Below are positions 1 through 11,228 of a stretch of DNA of 47,529 nt, in pieces; the first letter of the stretch is position 1; every line of letters begins with the position of its first letter. A model generated the notes under the pieces. That model saw only the letters and a program-made list of their open reading frames with translations, did not search any database and was not told the origin of the DNA. Both the position numbers and the translations under genes were made by a program. The DNA is from Candidatus Saccharimonadota bacterium (GTDB lineage: Bacteria; Patescibacteriota; Saccharimonadia; Saccharimonadales; JAQGHD01), in assembly GCA_028288965.1 (NCBI GenBank), contig JAQGHD010000005.1:1-47529 (forward strand), written 5' to 3'.

Positions 1-398
1 AAAATAACAATGTTGCCGGGCTGCCCTGGCACAGCCGTGTTGGGGTAGTGCACAACAGCGTGCTGAAGGGCTTTTTGAAAAGCACCTTGATTGACCACCG
101 ATTGATCAAAATTAATTGGTGCCGTGACATTAATCTTATTGATGGTAATTTTTGGAGGTGCATTCTTATCAATATTTGAAGACGCCGTTTGGTTATCCAA
201 TGAAGAGACATGAGCGCGCCGGGAGTACACCCTATAGGCAATCTTGCCGCTGATTAATGAAGAGTTAAAGAAGCCAAATACTGCCAGGGCCACAAGCAGC
301 CCAGCCAACGGTGGTAGCAGGTGCTTAGTAAAGCTCATCCGCACGCGGCTGTTGGCTAGCTCTTTAGATTTTTTGGCAGACTTGGTTGATTTAGTCAT
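1..398 (-). CDS. Sortase (class D/E-like), N-terminal part, truncated at left window edge
   Basis: Manual translation from ATG at 398: MTKSTKSAKKSKELANSRVRMSFTKHLLPPLAGLLVALAVFGFFNSSLISGK...PPKITINKINVTAPINFDQSVVNQGAFQKALQHAVVHYPNTAVPGQPGNIVIF. N-terminal TM plus sortase-like 'HYPNTAVPGQPGNIVIF'. Catalytic H/C/R lie outside the window. Missed by the ORF track because it is open at the edge. Confidence 0.85.
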   Translation of the reverse strand, partial: MTKSTKSAKKSKELANSRVRMSFTKHLLPPLAGLLVALAVFGFFNSSLISGKIAYRVYSRRAHVSSLDNQTASSNIDKNAPPKITINKINVTAPINFDQSVVNQGAFQKALQHAVVHYPNTAVPGQPGNIVI

Positions 399-455: not shown

Positions 456-1625
456 CTAATCTGTCACCAGAGCTGGCTCAACAACGTAACGGCGAGTAGT
501 GTCGTTTTCCCATCGGCCATCGCTGTGTCTAAACTTCCGCAGCAATATTACTTCGACAAAAGCTCGCAAGAACACCAATAAGCTCACCCATCTAAACATA
601 TAGATCTGCGGAAAGGCACTCACCACATCCCAACGTTTGGTGCGACTGGCAGTCAAAAAGGTAATGATAAACGTCACAAAAACATCCACCACAAAGGCAC
701 CAGCCACTACTGTTGTACTGTGCCGAGTAATCGCTAAATAGGGTATCCAGACAAGGTAGCTGGCAAAAAATATCAAGTTTTGCAAAATCTGGTAGCTAAT
801 ATAGGCATCGATTGGCGACAAGCGTCGGCCAATTTTATAGCGGACAATGCTCTGTAAACCACCGCGATTCCAACGTGTAATTTGCTTGGTGTAGTCTTTT
901 AACGTCTTAGGGTCCTGGGTGTAAGCCACAGCATTTGGGATAAACTGTACGCTGCCCAGTTTTTTACGATGCAGCTGCATGGTCACATCAAAATCCTCGG
1001 TCAGTGATTTGTTATCAAAATCAACCGCGGCAAACACATCCGCTCTAAAGCAAGACGTTGGTCCGGGAATAACTGGTACTACATTAAGCAATACCTGCAA
1101 CCGTCTATGGATTTCCATACCAACGGTATACTCAAAAACTCGGTACTCGCTGACTCGTTTGCCCGGCAGGCTCCGAACATAGCCAGTTGCGGCAGCATTT
1201 TTAACCCGCAGTGCTTTTCTAAAAACCGAGAAATAATTGGGTGCGAAGGCTCCGTCGGCATCAGCAATATGAATCCAGCGATAGCACTCGGTGAGCTTAA
1301 ATCGTTTAGCGGCCTTGGTAATGGCCAGCCCTTTACCGCTGCGCTGCACCCGAATAACGTTGCCAGGAGGCAAAATAGACTTGGCGATAGCGCTGGTGAG
1401 GTCAGCAGAATTATCGTCTACTACATATATATGTTCACTTTTCATGCCGGCTGCAATGGCAGATCGCAGAGTGTTGCCGATTACTAGTTCTTCATTATGG
1501 GCAGAGATAAGCAAGCAAAGCATTGGCTTGCTGGTCCGCGGCGCCCGAACCTTGGAGGTCTTTTTGACCGCGCGGCGCAGCACATTAACGGATTGGGTTT
1601 TGGCCTTTCGGCGAAACAACTTCAT
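456..1625 (-). CDS. Membrane glycosyltransferase family 2 (processive poly-GlcNAc/hyaluronan-synthase-like)
   Basis: 389 aa; DADGAF, TEDFD and QITRWNRGG (QxxRW) motifs, C-terminal TM segments; ATG overlaps stop of upstream deacetylase (TAATG). Confidence 0.85.
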   Translation of the reverse strand: MKLFRRKAKTQSVNVLRRAVKKTSKVRAPRTSKPMLCLLISAHNEELVIGNTLRSAIAAGMKSEHIYVVDDNSADLTSAIAKSILPPGNVIRVQRSGKGLAITKAAKRFKLTECYRWIHIADADGAFAPNYFSVFRKALRVKNAAATGYVRSLPGKRVSEYRVFEYTVGMEIHRRLQVLLNVVPVIPGPTSCFRADVFAAVDFDNKSLTEDFDVTMQLHRKKLGSVQFIPNAVAYTQDPKTLKDYTKQITRWNRGGLQSIVRYKIGRRLSPIDAYISYQILQNLIFFASYLVWIPYLAITRHSTTVVAGAFVVDVFVTFIITFLTASRTKRWDVVSAFPQIYMFRWVSLLVFLRAFVEVILLRKFRHSDGRWENDTTRRYVVEPALVTD

Positions 1626-2521
1626 TAGTGCGCTCCCTGCTGAGCGGTATAGGCATTTATAACCTGGTTTACCGTGGCACTACGCAGCGGACTATTACCG
1701 ATCAGTTTCATTTGTTGCGCAAACTGATCTGGTGTGACGGCGAACTCCTCGTTACTACTATCAATCTGGTGGTAGGTCAGCACCAGCCAACCATTGTGCG
1801 TCCGAGCGGCATCAAGCAGTTTCTGAATATCTTGTAACTTTGTATTTTTACGAATTGAATACGACACAAAGTTCATGGGGTCAAAGTTGGCCTTAGTGTT
1901 AATGGCCTCCAGTTCACTGGAAGCTGGATCGCCCTCGGCATTTTTTTGTGACCGATAATACTTACTAATAAAGTTGAGTGTGTGGGCATTATAAGCGCCA
2001 TATGGCGAAGTAAAATCAGTAATCTTAACTCCGAATTCTTTGTCTAGCAGTTGCTGCGAATCATATAATTCGTGCTTTAGTTGTTGGTCGTCAAGCATCG
2101 TCAGATCAGCGTGACTTATAGTGTGGGCGGCAATATCGTGTCCGGCACTTTGCAAAGAGTGCAGTTGGGCCAGCGACATGTAACCATGGTTACTGAAGGT
2201 GTCGGTAATAATGTAGTGAGTAGTATGGAAGCCATTAGTCTGCAGGACCGGCAAAGCTTTGGTGTAGACCGATTCCCAGCCATCATCAAAGGTTATGGTC
2301 ACAACTGGTTCAGCAAAAGGGGCCAGTGGCTGAGCGGTTTGATCAATAGTGCGAGGCTGCAGAGCAGCCACTTGTGTAGTTTTTCGGGGATCTTTGTCTC
2401 CCGCCAGCCCTTTAACAAATTGAAACGAAGTGAATAACGGTAGCAAAACTACCGCCAAAACAAAAACTGACATTATGGTTTTGGCTATTTTCTGATGAGC
2501 TTGACGCTTTTTCTTACTCAT
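1625..2521 (-). CDS. Polysaccharide deacetylase (NodB/CE4), membrane-anchored
   Basis: 298 aa; N-terminal TM; TITFDDGW, AHTISHADLT, DFTSPYGAYN, LVLTYHQID CE4 motifs. Confidence 0.88.
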   Translation of the reverse strand: MSKKKRQAHQKIAKTIMSVFVLAVVLLPLFTSFQFVKGLAGDKDPRKTTQVAALQPRTIDQTAQPLAPFAEPVVTITFDDGWESVYTKALPVLQTNGFHTTHYIITDTFSNHGYMSLAQLHSLQSAGHDIAAHTISHADLTMLDDQQLKHELYDSQQLLDKEFGVKITDFTSPYGAYNAHTLNFISKYYRSQKNAEGDPASSELEAINTKANFDPMNFVSYSIRKNTKLQDIQKLLDAARTHNGWLVLTYHQIDSSNEEFAVTPDQFAQQMKLIGNSPLRSATVNQVINAYTAQQGAH

Positions 2522-2562: not shown

Positions 2563-2724
2563 TTAACGATTAGCGTAGGCGTACAAAGCGCCCCACGTCA
2601 AAAGTCCAGCAACAACGGCAATTGCCACTGTTACAATCGTGTTACCACCGGTGTTAGGCAGTACTACTGCACCAGCTACTACGCTGGAGGTTGTAGCACC
2701 TAGAACTTGTCCTGTACCACTCAT
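2563..2724 (-). CDS. 53-aa LPxTG-type sorting-signal microprotein
   Basis: Manual translation: MSGTGQVLGATTSSVVAGAVVLPNTGGNTIVTVAIAVVAGLLTWGALYAYANR*. LPNTG followed by one TM and a C-terminal Arg; SD GAGGAAG just upstream of ATG; same strand as sortase/GT2/deacetylase. Confidence 0.8.
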   Translation of the reverse strand: MSGTGQVLGATTSSVVAGAVVLPNTGGNTIVTVAIAVVAGLLTWGALYAYANR

Positions 2725-2953
2725 AACTTCCTCACTTCTTATTGTTACTAAAATACCAGCAAATTATAAACTCTGTAGGCTTTTATGTCAAGCATTAAAT
2801 TATATTTTTGTTCTTTACGCAATTTCATGTGTTGTTAATGTTTTTGCTTATGCTTACCCCTGATGAGTATCTGTCTAAAATTTGACAAATCTAACGAATA
2901 AATGTAGAGTAACAATTAATTACATATAACTGGTGGGCAGTGGAGCGTGGTAC

Positions 2954-4942
2954 ATGATCAAGAAATTTGCCCTCTTTTTATCAACTATTTTCATAAGTTT
3001 AGCCTCTTTGTTACCGCTGGCGACGGCAACTGCTGCCGGCCCTAACTTAATCGTTAACCCATCTGTTGAAATTGCTAGTGGCACCCAGCCAACTGGCTGG
3101 AATCAGGACGTATGGGGCAAGAACACCACTACTTTCTCGCATAACACTGCCGAAGGCCACAGCGGCACTAAAAGCCTGTACATAAACATGACCAAGCGAA
3201 CGGGTGGTGATGCTAAATGGTATTTCACTAATGTACCGGTTAAACCAAACACCTCCTACACCTATAGCGAATTTTATGAATCAAACATTAAGACAGAGAT
3301 TGACGTAGCTTACACGACTGCGGCCAACACTGTTTCCTATAATAGCCTGGGAACTCCTGCAGCCGCCCCTACCTGGACTGCGGCCACCACCACCTTCACC
3401 ACCCCGGCTAATGTCCAAAGCTTGAGTGTTATGCACATCATCAACCGAGTTGGTTGGGTACAGACCGATGACTTTAGCCTGGTAGAAGGAACTGGTGTGG
3501 TCACACCACCAACCGCGCCGAGCGTCTCTATTACTGCACCTGTTGCCAACGCTACTGTAAGTGGCGCTGTAAACATTGATGCCAACGCCAGTGATGCCGT
3601 CGGCGTAGCCGGTGTCCAGTTCAAGCTTGATAACACCGCTTTAGGCGCCGAAGATACCACCGCCCCTTATGGCGTTAACTGGAACACCATTTCTGCCACC
3701 AACGGCACACACACCCTAACGGCTACCGCCCGAAACTCCAGTGGCCTCACGGCTACTGCCACCGAGACCGTCACCGTTCAAAACAATGTGGTTACTCCTC
3801 CGGGCAATAACCTTATCCTCAACTCATCACTCGAGACCACCAATGGTACCGCCCCAGCCAGCTGGTTATCCAGCAATTGGGGCAACAACACTTCTGCCTT
3901 TAGCTATCTAAACACCGGCCACACCGGTAGTCACAGCGTACGAGTTGACACGACCGCTTACACAGGTGGCGCTGCCAACTGGTACTACGCAGAGATTCCA
4001 GTGAGTAGCGGCAAAACGTACAAGTACGAGAACTGGTACCAAAGCAACGTTGATACCGAAGTTGATGCGGAAGTTACCATGACCGATGGCAGCGTCCAGT
4101 ACTTTTGGCTTGGCACCGTGCTCACCAATACTAATTGGACAAAATACAGCACCACCTTCACCCCACCTGCCGGCGCCAAAAGCATAGCCATTTACCAACT
4201 CCTAGCTAAGAAAGGCTACGTCGTTAGTGACGATTATTCCCTAAGCGAATACACACCCCTACCGCTAAACCGAGGCCTGGTAACTGTGACATTTGACGAT
4301 GGTTGGGCCAATCAGTACACCAACGCCTACCCGCTGCTACAGAAGTACGGACTGAATGCTGCGTTTTATATCATCTCGGGTGAGTTGGCTAACCAGCCAG
4401 ATTATATGAGCGGCAATCAAATATTGGCCCTAAGAAATAGCGGTAACGAAATTGGCTCGCACACCATTTCTCACCCCGACTTGACCACCAAGACCGTCGC
4501 CCAAATCACCAACGAAATGTCCCAGAGCCAGACCACATTACAGAATCTGCTGGGCCAACCAGTCACTGATTTTGCCTACCCATACGGTGCCTATAACGCC
4601 ACCACCATTGGCATCGGTAAGCAATATTACCAAAGCCAACGCAGCGTGAATGCCGGCTACAACACTAAAGAGAACTGGGACATCACTACGCTCAAGATCC
4701 ATGAAGTTGACAGCAACATCTCTCAGGCACAAGTCCAAGGCTGGATAGATGGCGCTATTGCCCAGAAGGCCTGGTTGATCTTGGTCTATCATGAGGTTGC
4801 TACCAAGCCCGTTGATCCAACTGACGCGCTATACACCACCCAGCCCTCAGACCTTGATGCCGAGCTGGCCTACCTTAAGAATTCTGGCGTAACGGTTAAA
4901 ACGGTTAACCAAGCGCTCAATGAAATTCTTCCGCAACTATAA
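2954..4942 (+). CDS. Secreted multidomain polysaccharide deacetylase: two CBM-like modules, Ig-like domain, NodB domain
   Basis: ORF opens at GTG 2933; ATG 2954 gives a clean signal peptide MIKKFALFLSTIFISLASLLPLATATAAG. Two NLI(V/L)N(P/S)S..E module copies, Ig-like 'APSVSITAPVANATVSG...', then VTFDDGW, SHTISHPDLT, DFAYPYGAYN, LILVYHE. Confidence 0.87.
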   Translation: MIKKFALFLSTIFISLASLLPLATATAAGPNLIVNPSVEIASGTQPTGWNQDVWGKNTTTFSHNTAEGHSGTKSLYINMTKRTGGDAKWYFTNVPVKPNTSYTYSEFYESNIKTEIDVAYTTAANTVSYNSLGTPAAAPTWTAATTTFTTPANVQSLSVMHIINRVGWVQTDDFSLVEGTGVVTPPTAPSVSITAPVANATVSGAVNIDANASDAVGVAGVQFKLDNTALGAEDTTAPYGVNWNTISATNGTHTLTATARNSSGLTATATETVTVQNNVVTPPGNNLILNSSLETTNGTAPASWLSSNWGNNTSAFSYLNTGHTGSHSVRVDTTAYTGGAANWYYAEIPVSSGKTYKYENWYQSNVDTEVDAEVTMTDGSVQYFWLGTVLTNTNWTKYSTTFTPPAGAKSIAIYQLLAKKGYVVSDDYSLSEYTPLPLNRGLVTVTFDDGWANQYTNAYPLLQKYGLNAAFYIISGELANQPDYMSGNQILALRNSGNEIGSHTISHPDLTTKTVAQITNEMSQSQTTLQNLLGQPVTDFAYPYGAYNATTIGIGKQYYQSQRSVNAGYNTKENWDITTLKIHEVDSNISQAQVQGWIDGAIAQKAWLILVYHEVATKPVDPTDALYTTQPSDLDAELAYLKNSGVTVKTVNQALNEILPQL

Positions 4943-8882: not shown

Positions 8883-8931
8883 TAGCGTAAACGAGCACGG
8901 GCGACCGTGTATAAAGGTGAAAAGGAAGATT

Positions 8932-10344
8932 ATGTTAAAGAAATTAGCTATTGGTCTACTCACTCTAGGTATTACTCTAATGCCACTGGCCCGGCTTAAG
9001 GTCGCCCATGCCGCTGCCCCAAACTTAATTGCCAATCCTTCTATGGAAACCGCTGCCAGTGCTACGGCTCCCGCCAACTGGACCGCTAGCAACTGGGGCA
9101 CCAACACCGCTGCTTTTAGTTATGAATCTACTGGCCACACCGGCAGTCACAGCCTTAAGGCCACAGTAAGCGCTTACACCACTGGTGACGCCAAATGGCT
9201 GCCAACCGATGTCGCTGTGACCCCTGGCATTACCTATGACTACAACAACTGGTACCAAAGTAATGTTGATACTGAGGTTGACGCCCAGGTCACCGCTACC
9301 GATGGCACTTTCTCATACTTCTTAGTCGCCAAGGCTTTGGCTAGCCCGAGTGCTTGGGCTAAAGCCGATGGCCAGTTTACTGCCCCAGCTAACGCCAAGT
9401 CAGTTACCTTTTTCCAAGTTATTAACAAAGTTGGTTACATGCAAATCGATGACGCTAGCATGAGCGTTTACACACCGACACCTTTTGCCGGTGGCTTAGT
9501 AAGCGTCACGTTGGATGATGGTTGGACCAACCAATACACCAATGCTAAGCCCGTCTTTGATAAGTATGGCATTAAGGCTACTTACTTTATTATCTCTGGT
9601 TCACTGACTGATCAGCCAGATTACATGAGCGCTGCTCAGGTACAAACGCTTCACAACGACGGTAACGAAATTGGCTCACACACCATTACGCACCCCGATC
9701 TGACAACCATGACACAAGCTCAAATTACAAACGAAATGTCACAAAGCCAGACCACCTTGCAAAGCACAGTTGGGGTACCAGTTACTGATTTTGCCTACCC
9801 ATTTGGGGCTTACAACGCCGCCACTTTAGCTACGGGCAAGCAGTACTACCACAGCCAACGCAGCGTCAACGCCGGCTATAACACAAAAGATAACTGGGAC
9901 ATCACACAGCTGAAAATTCACGAAGTTGACAGCAACATTTCTCAAGCCGAGGTAAAAGGCTGGATCGATGGTGCCATTGCCCAAAAGTCTTGGTTGATCT
10001 TGGTCTACCATGAGATTGCCACCACGCCTACCGACCCTACCGATGCCCTCTACACCACTCAGCCAGCCGATTTGGATGCTGAGATGGCCTACCTAAAGAA
10101 CTCTGGCGTACCAGTAGTTACCGTAGCTCAGGCTTTGGCTCAACTTGAACCACAGGTCAATGGCCAGCCAGTTGTTAAGCCAGGTGATGTCAACGGCGAT
10201 AACGCCATAGATGCCCTAGACCTCAGCTTAGTATTAAGTAATTGGAATAAAACAGGTGCTACCAAGGCCCAAGGTGATCTTAATGCCGACGGTGTGGTTG
10301 ATGCGCTTGATCTATCAACAGTATTAGCAAATTGGAGTAAATAA
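8932..10344 (+). CDS. Secreted polysaccharide deacetylase with N-terminal CBM-like module and C-terminal type I-like dockerin
   Basis: Start ATG 8932 after AAGGAAG SD; signal peptide MLKKLAIGLLTLGITLMPLARLKVAHA; VTLDDGW, SHTITHPDLT, DFAYPFGAYN, LILVYHE; C-terminus GDVNGDNAIDALDLSLVLSNWNK...GDLNADGVVDALDLSTVLANWSK. Confidence 0.9.
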   Translation: MLKKLAIGLLTLGITLMPLARLKVAHAAAPNLIANPSMETAASATAPANWTASNWGTNTAAFSYESTGHTGSHSLKATVSAYTTGDAKWLPTDVAVTPGITYDYNNWYQSNVDTEVDAQVTATDGTFSYFLVAKALASPSAWAKADGQFTAPANAKSVTFFQVINKVGYMQIDDASMSVYTPTPFAGGLVSVTLDDGWTNQYTNAKPVFDKYGIKATYFIISGSLTDQPDYMSAAQVQTLHNDGNEIGSHTITHPDLTTMTQAQITNEMSQSQTTLQSTVGVPVTDFAYPFGAYNAATLATGKQYYHSQRSVNAGYNTKDNWDITQLKIHEVDSNISQAEVKGWIDGAIAQKSWLILVYHEIATTPTDPTDALYTTQPADLDAEMAYLKNSGVPVVTVAQALAQLEPQVNGQPVVKPGDVNGDNAIDALDLSLVLSNWNKTGATKAQGDLNADGVVDALDLSTVLANWSK

Positions 10345-10346
10345 CT

Positions 10347-11228
10347 ATGAAGACTAAATTTTTACAAGCCCTGGCAACAGTATCGATCGTTGTTAGCGCA
10401 TTAACAGGCGTAGCTCACGCCGCTGGTTCCGCTCACTTTAGCTTGAACCCAAGCTCGGGCAGCTACACTCAGAATAGTAGCTTTAGCGTGCAGGTTCGTG
10501 AGAATGGTTCAGCCGTTAACGTTGTGACCGCTAAGCTAACCTACGACGCATCTAAATTAAGCTGTAATAGTGTCAACGGTAGCGCTGCGTTCCCTAGCAC
10601 CATTAGCACAACCTGTGGTGGTGGCAGCGTAACTATAAGTGAATACGTAGCTCCTGGCTCAGCCCCAGTAGATGGCGACCAATTGGTTGGCACCATAAAC
10701 TTTACAGCTCTGGCTAGCACTGGTTCTTCAAGCGTAACCTTCGCTGCTGGTTCACAAATTGCCAGCAACGGCACCAACACTTGGGATGGCCAAACTACCG
10801 GCGGCACCTACAGCTTTACCGCACCTGCCGGTGGCATGGGCGGCGGTGGTTCTACGGGCGGTTCTACTGGCTCAACCGGTGGAACATCTGCCGGTGGTTC
10901 AACTACCAAAACTACTGCTCCACAGGTTGCTAACCCTGGCGTCGTAGCTACCAACAACCAAAGTGCAACTACTCCAGCTACTGATTCAGCCCAAACAGCT
11001 GTTAAGGCCGAAAGTACTACAGCTCCTGTAGTATCAGCCGCAACCAGCCAAAAAACTCCGGTAAGCAAACCAGCCTCCCGCACTGCTACCTGGATTGTTA
11101 GTGGCATTGTGCTTGTAGCCTTAGCTATTGCCGGTGCCTTCATATGGATGAAGCGCTACAACAAGCAGCTGTTTGCATCTGTTACTAGTAAGCTGTCATT
11201 TGGCCGCTTTGCTAGCAAAAAAGCCTAA
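10347..11228 (+). CDS. Cohesin-like domain protein with C-terminal TM anchor
   Basis: 293 aa; signal peptide; cohesin-like 'FSVQVRENGSAVNVVTAKLTYDASKLSCNSVNGS...VDGDQLVGTINFTALASTGSSSVTFAAGSQIASNGTNTWDGQTTGGTYSF'; Gly/Ser/Thr linker; TM ATWIVSGIVLVALAIAGAFIWMKR. 2 nt after deacetylase stop. Confidence 0.8.
   Translation: MKTKFLQALATVSIVVSALTGVAHAAGSAHFSLNPSSGSYTQNSSFSVQVRENGSAVNVVTAKLTYDASKLSCNSVNGSAAFPSTISTTCGGGSVTISEYVAPGSAPVDGDQLVGTINFTALASTGSSSVTFAAGSQIASNGTNTWDGQTTGGTYSFTAPAGGMGGGGSTGGSTGSTGGTSAGGSTTKTTAPQVANPGVVATNNQSATTPATDSAQTAVKAESTTAPVVSAATSQKTPVSKPASRTATWIVSGIVLVALAIAGAFIWMKRYNKQLFASVTSKLSFGRFASKKA

What the first reader, a model, noticed from the sequence alone, without database searches (positions are those of the whole stretch)
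2563..2724. 53-aa protein that is almost only a sorting signal, with no signal peptide
MSGTGQVLGATTSSVVAGAVVLPNTGGNTIVTVAIAVVAGLLTWGALYAYANR is below the 60-aa ORF cutoff. It has LPNTG, a TM and a terminal Arg but no N-terminal export signal. Insertion would need an N-out/C-in single TM. If cleaved at T/G, only ~25 residues would be transferred, so it may be a peptide tag, a linker that anchors glycan, or a sortase regulator.
Basis: partly seen in the sequence, partly recalled or inferred. Interest (0 to 1): 0.7.

Follow-up and report, generated by a model that had tools for sequence, protein, structure and literature searches.

The report
Micro sortase substrate in glycan-synthesis module
A 53-residue protein that is little more than a cell-wall anchoring signal is a real, conserved gene in Saccharibacteria, always found with a polysaccharide-making enzyme and nearly always next to the anchoring enzyme (sortase), which suggests that these tiny parasitic bacteria use a micro-protein to hold a sugar polymer on their surface.

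Summary
The ORF is real. It starts with ATG after a Shine-Dalgarno sequence and a perfect 12/12 sigma-70 promoter, and close homologues differ mainly at synonymous sites (18:1 and 14:3 codons). It founds a family of 49-65-aa proteins in about 50 of 392 genomes of its order (17 families). The family has an N-terminal MY(G) or MS, an invariant LPxT, one transmembrane helix, a basic C-tail, no cysteine and no signal peptide.

The neighbourhood is the main result. Of 53 loci, 48 carry a sortase (42 directly downstream), 47 an intact hyaluronan-synthase/PgaC-like processive GT2, and 37 a CE4 deacetylase. All 51 genomes with the micro-protein have this GT2 clade, against 8 of 341 without it. In sister loci of the same sortase clade, the micro-protein's position is taken by ordinary secreted LPXTG proteins (30 of 35), and the GT2-like neighbour has then lost its catalytic residues (0/28 intact, against 38/38 in micro-protein loci).

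Best reading: a dedicated, signal-less sortase substrate tied to active polysaccharide synthesis. It most probably retains the polymer on the cell wall; that last step is inferred. The rival is a transmembrane accessory of the synthase. I found no published description, within an open-access library.

The parts
2563..2724 (-). micro-LPXTG protein, 53 aa (with stop codon); founding member of the family
2647..2661 (-). LPNTG sorting motif (residues 22-26); predicted sortase cleavage between T25 and G26
   Evidence: sequence; LPxT kept in 52 of 53 members
2575..2637 (-). predicted single transmembrane helix (about residues 30-50); carries the LLTWG motif of the window's subtype
   Evidence: hydropathy and alignment
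2729..2733 (-). Shine-Dalgarno sequence GAGGA
2763..2791 (-). sigma-70 promoter, TTGACA-17-TATAAT, 12 of 12 consensus bases
1625..2521 (-). polysaccharide deacetylase (CE4, Polysacc_deac_1) with an N-terminal membrane segment, 298 aa, 42 nt after the micro-protein gene
456..1625 (-). processive family-2 glycosyltransferase (hyaluronan synthase/PgaC-like, intact DxD, ED and QxxRW), 389 aa; overlaps the deacetylase gene end by one base
3..398 (-). N-terminal part of the sortase, cut by the contig edge; the C-terminal part with the catalytic Cys and Arg is on contig C15 (L084:1-351)

Best explanation
The ORF encodes a dedicated micro-substrate of the sortase in its own gene cluster. It is inserted without a signal peptide as an N-out/C-in single-span membrane protein (inferred; probably by YidC, as for other short, uncharged N-tails). 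The partner sortase cleaves LPNT|G and transfers the 25-residue N-terminal peptide to a surface amine (inferred from motif, partner and position). The cluster also makes and partly de-N-acetylates a processive polysaccharide (predicted from the GT2 and the CE4 deacetylase), so the micro-protein most likely serves to retain that polymer on the wall. Either the polymer is attached to the peptide (every member has Tyr in its first five residues or Ser/Thr at position 2), or the peptide is transferred to free amines that the deacetylase exposes on the polymer. Shown here: the gene and its conservation, the four-gene association, intact enzymes, and substitution by normal sortase substrates in sister loci. 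Inferred: topology, cleavage, acceptor, and the glycan link.
For: Real gene: perfect promoter, Shine-Dalgarno, synonymous bias in close pairs, 50 of 392 genomes in 17 families. Sortase substrate: 48 of 53 loci have a sortase (47 by profile plus the window's own split gene), in 42 the next gene on the same strand within 0-172 nt, against about 4% expected by chance. His, Cys and Arg are invariant in 40 partner sortases. In 30 of 35 loci of the same sortase clade with no micro-protein detected, the same slot holds a larger LPXTG protein, those read in full having an ordinary Sec signal. Subtype matching: the LLTWG-type micro-protein goes with the TLITCTPxGT-type sortase (4 of 4 v 1 of 43). Tied to polysaccharide synthesis: GT2 in 47 and deacetylase in 37 of 53 loci. 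All 51 micro-protein genomes have this GT2 clade v 8 of 341 others. GT2 catalytic residues are intact in 38 of 38 micro-protein loci v 0 of 28 where the substrate is a large protein. The window's GT2 folds like hyaluronan synthase (TM-score 0.72 over the chain). A member outside the order also sits 72 nt before a GT2.
Against: No experiment shows expression, insertion, cleavage or a glycan link. A 25-residue product is very small for a surface protein. One distant homologue near a GT2 and deacetylase reads LPAAG and has no sortase nearby (L189), and one member near a GT2 has no adjacent sortase (L126), so the GT2 link may be older than the sortase link. Some loci of the same GT2 clade have neither micro-protein nor sortase (L233, L229), so the polymer can be made without it. 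LCP glycopolymer transferases are common in the order (114 of 118 genomes), so another anchoring route exists in most relatives.
Confidence: 0.55

Rival explanations
1. Synthase accessory: the micro-protein is a transmembrane partner of the GT2, comparable in role to PgaD/IcaD or the BcsB membrane anchor. The sortase merely trims it, to switch, release or turn over the subunit.
For: Every genome with the micro-protein has this GT2 (51 of 51), while a sortase is missing nearby in a few. The LPAAG homologue beside a GT2 and deacetylase has no sortase. The helix carries a conserved Gly and subtype motifs.
Against: LPxT is the most conserved feature (52 of 53), more so than the helix. In sister loci the same slot holds secreted sortase substrates, not membrane subunits. 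Some loci of the same GT2 clade lack the micro-protein.
Confidence: 0.2
2. Peptide decoration of peptidoglycan: an ordinary if very small wall-anchored peptide. The sortase puts it on peptidoglycan and it changes surface properties by itself, with only regulatory co-expression with the polymer genes.
For: Standard sortase chemistry explains motif, helix, basic tail and neighbour.
Against: It does not explain why the GT2 is always present and always intact with the micro-protein but catalytically dead with larger substrates.
Confidence: 0.15
3. Signal peptide or sortase regulator: the cleaved N-terminal peptide is released as a signal, or the uncleaved protein occupies the sortase.
For: Small size, strong promoter and first-gene position in the window.
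Against: No conserved receptor or response regulator is linked to the family. The slot is equivalent to that of true substrates. N-terminal sequences vary between families.
Confidence: 0.07
4. Spurious ORF.
For: Only 53 aa, below usual annotation cut-offs, and no match in Pfam or NCBIfam.
Against: Conservation, synonymous bias, Shine-Dalgarno, perfect promoter and fixed gene context.
Confidence: 0.01

Closest known systems
LPXTG cell-wall sorting signal proteins (sortase substrates; LPXTG_anchor, TIGR01167)
   Same: LPxTG motif, hydrophobic helix and basic tail at the C-terminus; sortase gene next door
   Different: No N-terminal signal peptide and almost no protein before the motif (13-27 residues); the window protein scores 14.3 bits against a cut-off of 15.9
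GspA/LcpA/SrtA of Actinomyces oris (PMC6381275)
   Same: Shows that a sortase-anchored LPXTG protein can carry a glycopolymer on the wall
   Different: GspA is a normal secreted protein glycosylated by an LCP transferase; here there is a 53-aa protein, a processive GT2 and a deacetylase, and no LCP was found in this genome
PgaABCD / IcaADBC poly-N-acetylglucosamine systems
   Same: Processive GT2 (best NCBIfam match PgaC_IcaA) plus a CE4 deacetylase (weak PgaB, IcaB, NodB and HfsH matches)
   Different: All matches are far below the equivalog cut-offs; no PgaD/IcaD-like gene recognised; a sortase and a micro-LPXTG protein are added
Exosortase-linked polysaccharide loci (XrtA with TIGR03006 deacetylase; XrtG with TIGR03111 GT2)
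   Same: A sorting transpeptidase encoded with a GT2 and a deacetylase; weak matches to TIGR03111 and TIGR03006
   Different: Here the enzyme is a true sortase (PF04203) and the substrate bears LPxTG; the analogy otherwise rests on my own knowledge of those systems
Pf3 coat protein and other short N-out proteins inserted by YidC
   Same: Short uncharged N-tail of about 20 residues, one helix, basic C-tail
   Different: A mechanistic analogy from general knowledge only; insertion was not tested
Tail-anchored sortase substrates exported by Tat (PMC10924467)
   Same: C-tail-anchored sortase substrates outside the usual Sec route
   Different: Those have an N-terminal twin-arginine signal peptide; the micro-proteins have none

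Membership tests
Sortase substrates (LPXTG proteins) | LPxTG-type motif before a C-terminal helix and basic tail | tested here: met
   LPxT in 52 of 53; position 5 is G 39, S 6, A 5, H 2; C-tail mean net charge +2.7
Sortase substrates (LPXTG proteins) | N-terminal Sec (or Tat) signal peptide | tested here: not met
   No signal in any member read; upstream frame closed within 10 codons in 34 of 53 and within 20 in 38 of 53
Sortase substrates (LPXTG proteins) | Cleaved at T|G and covalently transferred by a sortase | not testable with these tools
   Only genetic linkage (48 of 53) and positional equivalence to normal substrates (30 of 35) were shown
Sortase (PF04203), partner enzyme | Catalytic His, Cys and Arg | tested here: met
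   Invariant H119, C178 and R186 in 40 relatives; fold matches sortases C and E. In the window's own gene Cys and Arg are on contig C15 and the His lies in the assembly gap
Processive GT2 synthases (hyaluronan, cellulose, PgaC type) | D, DxD, ED and QxxRW residues with a membrane part | tested here: met
   DDDD[ED]DQRW in 38 of 38; full-length match to hyaluronan synthase by profile and fold
PgaC/IcaA equivalog (TIGR03937) | Score above the curated cut-off | tested here: not met
   72.6 bits (window) and 157.6 bits (L044) against 422.3
PgaD/IcaD accessory subunits | Two-helix subunit recognisable by sequence | tested here: not met
   One helix only and no Pfam or NCBIfam match; similarity of role was not tested
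LCP (LytR-CpsA-Psr) glycopolymer anchoring | PF03816 protein in the genome | tested here: not met
   None in the window's genome, though 114 of 118 genomes in the order have one, so absence is not part of the module

The most novel reading that the evidence does not exclude
A sortase-based route for fixing a polysaccharide to the bacterial surface. The micro-protein is the handle: the glycan is primed on or attached to its N-terminal Tyr/Ser, or the sortase transfers the LPNT peptide onto amines that the deacetylase exposes on the polymer, and the sortase thereby joins polymer and wall without LCP enzymes or lipid-linked intermediates.
Probability: 0.33. Interest if true: 0.88.

Novelty: new variant of a known kind. 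Interest (0 to 1): 0.68.

Why it matters
Sortases are known for attaching proteins. A conserved cluster in which the only visible substrate is about 25 residues long, and in which the other constant partner is an active polysaccharide synthase, implies that the anchored object is not the protein. If so, Saccharibacteria, which live on the surface of other bacteria, have a new way of holding a surface polymer, and a four-gene set makes it testable. It also shows that short LPXTG proteins without signal peptides, which annotation discards, can be real.

Tried and rejected
(1) Profile families: no Pfam or NCBIfam match for the micro-protein. (2) Pattern scan of named genomes with the 53-aa query found no relative; the profile search did. 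(3) LCP absence as support for a sortase-only anchor: absent in this genome but present in 114 of 118 relatives, so dropped. (4) Pilin-like polymerisation: no conserved Lys before the motif (16 of 53 have one). (5) Hidden upstream signal peptide: excluded by closed frames. (6) 'The GT2 always needs the micro-protein': rejected, since 8 genomes with the GT2 lack it; 2 of these end at contig edges beside the module, but others (L229, L233) show intact GT2-deacetylase loci without it. (7) Phage origin: no match in phage records. (9) Literature searches for sortase or LPXTG with Saccharibacteria/Patescibacteria, exosortase XrtG, sortase with exopolysaccharide, and sortase with amino sugars gave no description of this module; only an open-access library was searched.

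Full report
WHAT WAS CHECKED. The ORF at 2563-2724 (minus) is exactly as described. It has an ATG start, a GAGGA Shine-Dalgarno, and the only 12-of-12 sigma-70 promoter of the region, TTGACA-17-TATAAT at 2791-2763. The frame is closed 13 codons upstream, so there is no in-frame signal peptide.

FAMILY. A search of 99 relatives gave short homologues. A profile of 15 (A1) against 392 genomes of the order gave 50 genomes in 17 families with full-length short ORFs at E<4e-7. Below that the matches are C-termini of large LPXTG proteins. The 53 members collected (one truncated by a contig end) are 49-65 aa when complete. LPxT is kept in 52, none has Cys, all have Tyr in the first five residues or Ser/Thr at position 2, net charge before the motif is about 0 and after the helix about +2.7. 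Shine-Dalgarno sequences are present in nearly all. Close pairs change mostly at synonymous sites: 14 v 3 codons and 18 v 1 codons. In a phylum-wide sample one clear member lies outside the order, 72 nt before a GT2 (L188), and one LPAAG variant lies near a GT2 and a deacetylase (L189).

MODULE. In the window the order is micro-protein, deacetylase, GT2, sortase, all on the minus strand. The sortase is cut by the contig edge. Its second half starts contig C15, followed by MurA, GlyA and MurB genes, as downstream of the module in relatives. Across 53 loci the order varies but the set recurs: sortase in 48 (47 by profile plus the window's split gene), GT2 in 47, deacetylase in 37. In 42 the sortase is the next gene on the same strand within 0-172 nt. 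Chance would give a sortase within 6 kb in about 4% of loci if a genome has three.

PARTNERS. Sortases: His, Cys and Arg are invariant in 40, and the AlphaFold model (mean pLDDT 91) matches sortases C and E. GT2: DDDD[ED]DQRW in 38 of 38, profile match over nearly the full length to hyaluronan synthase, window model mean pLDDT 89.7 with top fold hits to hyaluronan synthase at TM 0.72, best NCBIfam match PgaC_IcaA but below its cut-off. The product is therefore predicted to be a processive polysaccharide of unknown sugar. Deacetylase: CE4, PF01522.

COMPARATIVE TEST. The partner sortases form a sharply bounded clade (E<1e-32, next hits >1e-22). I read 35 of its loci in which no micro-protein had been found. 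In 30 a larger LPXTG protein (about 170-450 aa; those read in full have a Sec signal) sits in the micro-protein's slot. The gene after the sortase in 28 of these never has the GT2 catalytic set, although 22 still match the GT2 profile at E<1e-4; micro-protein loci have it in 38 of 38 (Fisher about 7e-19 when counted as 38/38 v 0/27, ignoring relatedness). One locus without a detected substrate (L144) proved on inspection to hold a divergent micro-protein (MNYTKALPATGGG...) between a GT2 with QxxRW and a deacetylase. At genome level all 51 micro-protein genomes have the GT2 clade v 8 of 341 others; the GT2 profile was itself built from micro-protein loci.

INTERPRETATION. The slot equivalence argues that the micro-protein is a sortase substrate. 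The link to an active polymerase argues that it serves the polymer. The simplest joint reading is retention of the polymer on the wall through a minimal sortase handle. Steps shown: gene, family, association, intact catalytic sites, slot substitution. Steps inferred: N-out insertion, cleavage, acceptor, and the glycan link. The strongest rival is an accessory subunit of the synthase, favoured by the LPAAG homologue without a sortase.

KNOWN SYSTEMS. Glycopolymer on a sortase-anchored protein has a precedent in GspA of Actinomyces oris, made by an LCP enzyme (PMC6381275). Sorting enzymes beside GT2 and deacetylase genes are known for exosortases (weak matches to TIGR03111 and TIGR03006; the rest from general knowledge). 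No description of a signal-less micro-LPXTG protein with a processive GT2 was found.

LIMITS. No expression or biochemical data. Genomes are draft and contig edges hide some neighbours. Counts are not corrected for phylogeny. The sugar made by the GT2 and the sortase acceptor are unknown.

Noticed in passing
window 8917-10344 (+) and 10347-11228 (+): A CE4 deacetylase ending in a type I dockerin (PF00404, E=1.5e-9) is followed by a protein of a cluster (c7) whose member L108:6348-7316 matches Cohesin (PF00963, E=1.2e-7): a possible cohesin-dockerin pair. The module deacetylase of L044 also ends in a dockerin.
   Followed up: partly
window 1625-2521, 2933-4942, 8917-10344: Three CE4 polysaccharide deacetylases within 9 kb; the second carries a Big_7 domain and the third a carbohydrate-binding CBM_4_9 match.
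   Followed up: no
L142-L175, gene downstream of the sortase: GT2-derived membrane proteins that have lost the catalytic residues are kept beside sortases whose partner is a large Asn/Ser/Thr-rich LPXTG protein: apparent pseudo-enzymes.
   Followed up: partly
L084:354-1991: MurA (UDP-GlcNAc enolpyruvyl transferase) with an N-terminal Cro/C1-type helix-turn-helix domain; a relative next to a module (L038) has the same layout.
   Followed up: no
window 3-398 and L084:1-351: The sortase gene is split between the left ends of contigs C9 and C15; synteny with relatives says the two contigs adjoin.
   Followed up: yes
L189, about 4650-4838 (-): Micro-protein-like ORF with LPAAG instead of LPxTG near a GT2 and deacetylase, with no sortase nearby, in another order of the phylum.
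   Followed up: partly
G337:C2:565097-566200 (L134, L234): The GT2 frame beside this micro-protein contains an in-frame TAG: a decayed or misassembled copy.
   Followed up: no
G000 whole genome: No LytR-CpsA-Psr protein was found, while 114 of 118 genomes of the order have one; this may be a real loss or a gap in the assembly.
   Followed up: partly
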